Source: Clostridiales bacterium
Lineage (GTDB): Bacteria > Bacillota > Clostridia > Lachnospirales > CAG-274
DNA length: 64,000 nucleotides
Assembly (NCBI GenBank): GCA_021204175.1
Contig: JAJPZT010000059.1
Span: forward strand, 1-64,000
Reading direction: 5' to 3'
The notes under the pieces are model-generated. The model was given only the letters and a program-made list of their open reading frames with translations, ran no database searches and was not told the DNA's origin. Positions 9,363 through 54,272 of the stretch are shown piece by piece (position 1 is the stretch's first letter; each line of letters starts with the position of its first letter). The position numbers and the translations under genes were made by a program.

Positions 9363-9542
9363 TACTATAAAAGTCGATTGCTGCGTGCTTCGCACTTTCG
9401 CAATCGCCGCCGGCATTCGTAATCCGCTCATTTTCATATAGAAAATGGCTACTTACTCATACCGGTTAGGTTCTCTAATGCCCAATCATTTATGCAAGCA
9501 AGCTTGCCTATCTGATTGTCCATTGAGAACGCTTTTATAGTA
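9363..9542. other. Structured intergenic element (multi-hairpin, closed by an 11-bp inverted repeat)
   Basis: TACTATAAAAG (9363-9373) pairs with CTTTTATAGTA (9532-9542); inside are CGATTGC...GCAATCG, CATTTTCatataGAAAATG and GTTCTC..AATG..CAATC/GATTG..CATT.GAGAAC stems; no ORF. Confidence 0.55.
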
Positions 9543-28031: not shown

Positions 28032-28192
28032 GTAACAGTTCAGCCAACCATTCGCTAAACGTCTGCTACGCATCCTTCGCAGCTACGCTGCTCTGTTTAG
28101 CTCATTATTTGGCGCTCCGCTCGTGTCTTATTTTCAGCTTTTGCATATAAATATGCACAAGCTAAAAATAAAAGACACGGCTGAACTGTTAC
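28032..28192 (+). repeat. Palindromic structured element, copy A
   Basis: GTAACAGTTCAGCC...GGCTGAACTGTTAC perfect 14-bp terminal inverted repeat; internal GCAGCtacGCTGC hairpin and long GTGTCTTATTTTCAGCTT...AAGACAC hairpin. Confidence 0.8.
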
Positions 28193-35811: not shown

Positions 35812-35979
35812 GCAACAGTTCAGCCAAATAATTCGCTAAACGTCTGCTTCGCATCCGTCGCCGCTAAAGCGGCTATCTTTTAGCTCATTATTTGGCGCTC
35901 TGCTCGTGGTTATAAAAAGCTCCTTTAGTGTACAAGTACACACAGGAGCTTTTTATATTAACCACGGCTGAACTGTTGC
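35812..35979 (+). repeat. Palindromic structured element, copy B
   Basis: GCAACAGTTCAGCC...GGCTGAACTGTTGC; internal GCCGCtaaaGCGGC hairpin and GTGGTTATAAAAAGCTCCT...AGGAGCTTTTTATATTAACCAC hairpin. Confidence 0.85.
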
Positions 35980-50150: not shown

Positions 50151-50315
50151 GCAACAGTTCAGCCGTGTCATTTGTTTTCAGATTTTTGCATATTTATATG
50201 CATAAAAGATGAAAATATGACACGAGCGGAGCGCCAAATAATGAGTAAAACAAAGCCGTGCAACGGCGAAGGCTGCGAAGCAGACGTTTTGCGAATTATT
50301 TGGATGAACTGTTAC
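50151..50315 (-). repeat. Palindromic structured element, copy C (opposite orientation)
   Basis: Minus strand GTAACAGTTCATCCAAATAATTCGCAAAACGTCTGCTTCGCAGCCTTCGCCGTTGCACGGC...ACTCATTATTTGGCGCTCCGCTCGTGTCA...TGACACGGCTGAACTGTTGC. Confidence 0.85.
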
Positions 50316-54070: not shown

Positions 54071-54083
54071 GTGTCAAAGACTA

Positions 54084-54211
54084 TGCGCGTTTTTGCTTAC
54101 GCGAAACCCGTGCTTCGCACGTCCCGATGTCTTTCGGGTTCTCCTTGTAACCCCTACTGAGTGAAATGTAAGTACCCACCGCTTAAGAAGTGGGGGCTTA
54201 CTTTGTTGGAT
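54084..54211 (+). mobile_element. Possible IS200/IS605-type right-end / omega-RNA-like remnant (no transposase or TnpB)
   Basis: Chain of hairpins CGCGTttttgcttACGCG, CGTGCttcGCACG, CCCGAtgtcttTCGGG, then GTAAGTACCCACCGCTTAAGAAGTGGGGGCTTAC, similar in form to IS605-group right ends. Confidence 0.35.
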
Positions 54212-54216
54212 AAAAA

Positions 54217-54272
54217 CAGCCGCCTCGGAAAAGGAAAAAGCTTATTTTTCCAAATCCGAGACGGCTTTTTAA
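54217..54272. terminator. Rho-independent terminator
   Basis: AGCCGcCTCGGA...TCCGAGaCGGCTTTTT. Confidence 0.7.

What the first reader, a model, noticed from the sequence alone, without database searches (positions are those of the whole stretch)
28032..28192. Three-copy family of 161-168 bp palindromic elements with conserved frame and variable hairpin arms (copies at 28032, 35812, 50151)
Copies A (28032-28192), B (35812-35979) and C (50151-50315, inverted) share 14-bp terminal inverted repeats GTAACAGTTCAGCC/GGCTGAACTGTTAC. They also share the inner blocks CAAATAATTCGCTAAACGTCTGCTTCGCATCC and TCATTATTTGGCGCTCCGCTCGTG. AAATAAT also pairs with ATTATTT, and GCTAAA with TTTAGC, so the whole element can fold as a branched structure. 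There is no ORF of its own. This could be a MITE/REP-like non-autonomous element, a structured RNA or a DNA-protein site; I do not recognise it as a named family.
Basis: seen in the sequence. Interest (0 to 1): 0.8.

Follow-up and report, generated by a model that had tools for sequence, protein, structure and literature searches.

The report
IS66-type mini-transposon that folds
The three repeats are copies of a small gene-less jumping DNA (about 165 bp) found across gut Lachnospiraceae and related bacteria, very probably moved by an IS66-type transposase, and unusually its inside is kept foldable on one particular strand, which hints that it also works as a folded RNA or single-stranded DNA.

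Summary
Copies A, B and C are three of 16 full copies in this genome; exact-TIR relatives occur in over 100 contigs, mostly Lachnospiraceae. The element is a MITE: 14-bp terminal inverted repeats (TIRs), no ORF, and an 8-bp target-site duplication (48 of 163 copies perfect; 0.3 expected; no other length). Sister genomes lack A and B, and for two further insertions carry an empty site with the 8-bp target once. The same TIRs, exactly, bound a 1815-bp IS66-family (ISBst12-like, single 505-aa DDE transposase) element in another Lachnospiraceae genome. Degraded pieces of that transposase, beside the same TIR, lie in two congeners; the window genome has none. MITE and IS share only the TIR. The interior is unusual: two stems plus a linker, conserved across Lachnospiraceae while the arms change freely (28 of 42 pairs with two-sided compensatory changes). 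Stem-2 mismatches are strand-asymmetric (G·A versus C·T 25:1; G·U versus A·C 35:19), and a G(CUYG)C apical loop appears on the same strand. So one defined strand seems selected to fold, as RNA or ssDNA. I found no description of it, no Rfam family, and no orientation bias towards neighbouring genes. The role of the fold is inferred, not shown.

The parts
28032..28192 (+). Copy A, complete MITE (161 bp); the strand inferred to fold is the - strand
   Evidence: absent from the orthologous spacer of G001 and G006
28032..28045 (+). Left TIR of A, GTAACAGTTCAGCC
   Evidence: identical to both ends of the IS66-family element in L335
28179..28192 (+). Right TIR of A, GGCTGAACTGTTAC
28054..28101 (.). 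Stem 1 of A with two small hairpins (28064-28072 and 28079-28091)
   Evidence: fold; covariation of the homologous helices in 36 elements
28111..28122 (+). Conserved linker GGCGCTCCGCTC (GAGCGGAGCGCC on the inferred folding strand)
   Evidence: alignment; linker variants counted
28123..28178 (.). Stem 2 of A, long hairpin with freely varying but complementary arms
35812..35979 (+). Copy B, complete MITE (168 bp) with an unrelated stem-2 arm sequence
   Evidence: absent from the orthologous spacer of G001 and G006
50151..50315 (-). Copy C, complete MITE (165 bp), inverted; 7 of 8 target-site duplication TAATTTTA/GAATTTTA

Best explanation
The repeats are copies of a non-autonomous miniature transposon (MITE, about 165 bp) mobilised in trans by an IS66-family transposase of the single-ORF ISBst12 type. 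The transposase recognises the 14-bp ends and inserts the element into A/T-rich intergenic DNA with an 8-bp staggered cut. Shown: TIRs, exact 8-bp duplications, empty sites in sister genomes, and an autonomous IS with identical ends. Inferred: mobilisation in trans by that IS. No source IS was found in the window's genome, so its copies may now be immobile. The interior, not derived from the known IS, is a conserved two-stem fold kept by compensatory change on one specific strand (5'-TIR, stem 2 with a CUYG apical loop, GAGCGGAGCGCC linker, stem 1 with tandem G·A, TIR-3'). The most likely reason is that this strand acts as a folded single strand, RNA more likely than ssDNA, that favours persistence or transposition of the element; this last step is inference.
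For: 8-bp TSD exact in 48 of 163 elements versus 0.28 expected, other lengths essentially absent. A and B missing from orthologous spacers of sister genomes; precise empty sites with the 8-bp target once for TGAAAAAT and CATATTAT. L335: 1815-bp element, 505-aa PF03050 transposase, exact TIRs at both ends. Broken pieces of the same transposase beside the same TIR in congeners G003 and G005. Multi-copy IS with homologous ends in G070. TIR and 8-bp repeat like ISBst12-group ISDge4. Interior: 28 of 42 pairs with two-sided changes, covariation score 0.426 versus 0.141 in shuffles. Strand asymmetry of stem-2 mismatches, apical loop and folding energy.
Against: No transposition assay. The one intact IS copy (L335) has no recognisable TSD itself. 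The window genome holds no IS66 transposase. A and B have no recognisable TSD. The elements show no orientation bias towards genes (36:32) and no obvious internal promoter in copy A, which leaves it open how the strand would be transcribed. Relatedness among elements inflates covariation and mismatch counts, only partly corrected by clustering.
Confidence: 0.88

Rival explanations
1. Ordinary IS66-type MITE whose palindromes are neutral: hairpin arms are made and kept self-complementary by DNA-level processes (quasi-palindrome correction, template switching, hairpin gain in loops), with no selected function of the fold.
For: Some copies carry extra hairpins inserted in the stem-1 loop (L013, L073, L077, L078). 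Copy C23 and L067 have the stem-1 mismatch replaced by perfect pairing, as correction would do. No orientation bias towards genes.
Against: DNA-level correction treats both strands alike, but mismatch types are strongly strand-asymmetric (C·T versus G·A 25:1; same direction in the genus and outside it). The architecture and linker are conserved across many genera.
Confidence: 0.35
2. A host-beneficial structured RNA or regulatory element (terminator, leader or small RNA) that happens to be spread by transposition.
For: Strong covariation and RNA-like features on one strand. Intergenic location, close to genes (median about 94 bp).
Against: No orientation bias relative to neighbouring genes (36:32), context like background spacers, presence or absence differing between sister genomes, no Rfam family, and no shared neighbouring genes noticed.
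Confidence: 0.08
3. A REP/BIME-like or IS200/IS605-type element moved as single-stranded DNA by a Y1 (HUH) enzyme.
For: Imperfect hairpins with a strand preference are typical substrates of Y1 enzymes (general knowledge).
Against: Exact 8-bp TSDs and 14-bp TIRs are present, and the IS with the same ends encodes a DDE IS66 enzyme; Y1 transposition makes no TSD.
Confidence: 0.02

Closest known systems
IS66 family, ISBst12 group (ISBst12 of Geobacillus stearothermophilus; ISDge4 of Deinococcus geothermalis, PMC12898284)
   Same: TIR GTAACAGTTCAGCC matches GTAACTGCTCAGCA of ISDge4 at 11 of 14 positions; 8-bp direct repeat; the autonomous relative L335 has a single DDE transposase ORF (505 aa; ISDge4 449 aa)
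   Different: The element studied has no transposase, is about 165 bp, and shares only the TIR with the IS; the L335 protein is below the NCBIfam IS66 equivalog cut-off (157.9 versus 180 bits)
Bacterial MITEs (e.g. MITEPsy1/MITEPsy2 of Pseudomonas syringae, PMC3189936)
   Same: Short, TIRs, TSD, no ORF, ends shared with an IS
   Different: Those cited derive from IS5 or Tn3 relatives; here IS66/ISBst12. The interior has a conserved, strand-specific fold with compensatory evolution rather than an internal deletion of an IS
IStrons (group I intron plus IS; survey PMC4227781)
   Same: A structured single strand carried by a transposable element
   Different: No group I intron (no Rfam match), no ORF, far smaller; self-splicing not indicated
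REP/BIME palindromes with RAYT transposases
   Same: Repeated intergenic palindromes with imperfect, strand-specific hairpins
   Different: REPs have no TIR/TSD and belong with Y1 enzymes; here a DDE transposase and 8-bp TSD

Membership tests
MITE | Short (below about 300 bp), multi-copy, no coding capacity | tested here: met
   161-168 bp, 16 full copies in the genome, no ORF of its own
MITE | Terminal inverted repeats | tested here: met
   14-bp TIRs in window and related elements
MITE | Target-site duplication of fixed length | tested here: met
   8 bp, 48 of 163 exact versus 0.28 expected
MITE | Empty sites in related genomes | tested here: met
MITE | Mobilised in trans by an autonomous relative | not testable with these tools
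   Same TIRs as the IS66-family element L335; movement itself needs an experiment
IS66 family, ISBst12 group (as source) | DDE_Tnp_IS66 transposase as the only ORF between these TIRs | tested here: met
   L335: 505 aa, PF03050 E 2.4e-21, no accessory ORF in 1815 bp
IS66 family, ISBst12 group (as source) | TIR beginning GTAA and 8-bp duplication | tested here: met
   TIR exact; 8-bp duplication seen for the MITEs, not recognisable at the single intact IS copy
IS66 family, ISBst12 group (as source) | Source IS present in the same genome | tested here: not met
   None in the window genome; degraded pieces with the TIR in two congeners
Rfam structured RNA | Match above the gathering score | tested here: not met
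Structured RNA (new) | Covariation supporting a fold | tested here: met
   0 of 500 shuffles reach the observed covariation score; relatedness not fully controlled
Structured RNA (new) | Strand-specific folding constraint | tested here: met
   G·A versus C·T 25:1, G·U versus A·C 35:19 on the folding strand; does not separate RNA from ssDNA
Structured RNA (new) | A transcript from that strand | not testable with these tools
   No transcriptome data available here
REP/RAYT or IS200/IS605 | No TIR and no TSD | tested here: not met
   14-bp TIRs and 8-bp TSD

The most novel reading that the evidence does not exclude
An IS66-driven mini-transposon family of gut Clostridia carries a conserved structured RNA (or ssDNA) of a new kind on one strand: two stems in a branched fold with a CUYG-capped arm, tandem G·A and a GAGCGGAGCGCC linker. 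The fold is selected for the element's own spread or harmlessness, a 'structured-RNA MITE'.
Probability: 0.4. Interest if true: 0.75.

Novelty: new variant of a known kind. Interest (0 to 1): 0.5.

Why it matters
It explains a common but apparently undescribed repeat of Lachnospiraceae and related Clostridia and ties it to a transposase family. It also shows that the interior of a MITE can evolve under strand-specific folding constraint, which is not expected of a passive deletion derivative. That makes a concrete question testable: does a transposon need an RNA or ssDNA fold on one strand? The family offers many natural compensatory variants for such tests.

Tried and rejected
Phage, plasmid and viral carriage: no match; a TIR-only scan of viral contigs returned many single sites, which I took as chance. 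Far-apart TIR pairs in isolate genomes (3-8 kb; L318, L325, L326) enclose ordinary genes and no transposase, so they are unrelated insertions. IS66 copies in G061, G062, G064 and G068 do not have these ends, so the ends belong to one IS66 subgroup. Terminator or leader role: no orientation bias. Rfam with permissive settings gave only sub-threshold microRNA-type matches to the long hairpin. Literature: no paper found on IS66-derived MITEs of this kind or on this TIR; subscription journals and ISfinder were not searchable. L024 (contig C99) and L368 look like chance TIR pairs or unrelated elements. An R-scape test was not available; pair counts with shuffles and slid partners were used instead.

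Full report
What was checked. The three copies are at the stated coordinates. Only A has both ends exactly GTAACAGTTCAGCC/GGCTGAACTGTTAC; B and C carry small changes, and the inner blocks are similar rather than identical. The genome (2.34 Mb, 128 contigs) holds 16 full copies and about ten partial ones. The TIR pattern occurs 34 times against 1 for a reversed control.

Distribution. 6 of 9 genomes of the genus have copies. Nearly all are Lachnospiraceae or other Clostridia, such as Acetatifactor, Mediterraneibacter, Dorea, Roseburia, Anaerobutyricum and Catenibacillus. In an order-wide sample 12 of 392 genomes had exact-TIR pairs, up to 20 in one genome. Phages, plasmids and viral contigs gave none.

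It moves. Of 163 distinct elements, 48 are flanked by a perfect 8-bp direct repeat where 0.28 is expected when flanks are shuffled. Exact repeats of 7, 9 or 10 bp are essentially absent. The flanks are 76% A+T. Orthologous spacers in congeners G001 and G006 lack A and B. For C42b (TGAAAAAT) and for a copy in G006 (CATATTAT) the sister genome has an empty site with the target once; for C61 the sister site is empty and near-identical. The 296-bp copy in C17 is also absent from G001 and G006, but that junction aligns with small gaps. Copy C in the window keeps a 7-of-8 duplication. A and B have none that I can recognise; they are probably older.

Who moves it. TIRs starting GTAA plus an 8-bp duplication pointed to IS66 (general knowledge of the family). 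Among the IS66 transposases found in 12 element-bearing genomes, one (L335) is flanked on both sides by the exact 14-bp TIR. It is a 1815-bp element with a single 505-aa ORF (PF03050, E 2.4e-21; DUF6444) and no accessory gene. In G070 several contigs end inside a multi-copy element with homologous ends. Two congeners of the window genome, G003 and G005, hold broken pieces of this transposase beside the same TIR; the window genome has none. ISDge4, an ISBst12-group element observed to transpose, has an end GTAACTGCTCAGCA and made an 8-bp duplication (PMC12898284). That the MITE moves in trans is inferred.

The interior. MITE and IS share only the ends. Most copies have a fixed plan: stem 1 with two small hairpins, a linker GGCGCTCCGCTC, then a long hairpin (stem 2). 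In 36 diverse elements 28 of 42 pairs show changes on both sides; the covariation score is 0.426, against 0.141 (sd 0.009) in shuffles and at most 0.103 with slid partners. The TIR helix hardly varies, as expected of a transposase site. Sequence relatedness is not removed by these controls.

Strand asymmetry. In double-stranded or cruciform DNA both strands would be equivalent. With the element oriented so that stem 2 is on the right, and counting each stem-2 cluster and position once (35 clusters), isolated mismatches are C·T 25 versus G·A 1 (p = 8e-7) and A·C 35 versus G·U 19 (p = 0.04). Without clustering, and with a laxer definition, the same direction is seen in the window's genus (23:1 and 16:3) and in other genera (73:4 and 59:26). 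So on the opposite strand the tolerated mismatches are G·A and G·U, the mild ones. That strand also shows the apical loop G(CUYG)C in 89 of about 146 elements and a recurrent tandem G·A in stem 1, and it folds more stably as RNA in 94% of 135 elements. The energy difference partly restates the same mismatches and shared motifs and is not independent evidence. I read this as selection on one strand as a single strand. RNA is the simpler reading; ssDNA is not excluded, since DNA parameters give the same direction. Elements are not oriented with neighbouring genes (36:32) and rarely lie inside ORFs (2 cases), so a host regulatory role is unlikely.

Verdict. A MITE, very probably of the ISBst12 group of IS66, widespread and apparently undescribed in the open literature that could be searched, with an unusual strand-specific fold. 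New variant of a known kind.

Noticed in passing
L013 1499-1794 (contig C17), L073, L077, L078: Some copies carry extra hairpin modules (GAACTTTTCC...GGAAAAG, CAGCTTCGCTG, CCGACATCTTTCGG) inserted in the stem-1 loop; parts of these modules recur elsewhere in the genome as repeats of their own.
   Followed up: partly
54080-54230: Intergenic stretch with another repeated hairpin family (CCCGATGTCTTTCGGG) followed by a degenerate GTAAGTACCCACCGCTTAAGAAGTGGGGGCTTAC hairpin, resembling an IS200/IS605-type end remnant; similar sequence at L414.
   Followed up: no
9365-9540: Clostridiales-1 RNA (RF01699), 116.6 bits, - strand.
   Followed up: no
L081, L117, L164, L108, L110; L327 196-237: Other small elements share the same TIRs but have unrelated interiors, or almost none (about 43 bp in Catenibacillus), so several MITE types seem to use the same ends.
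   Followed up: no
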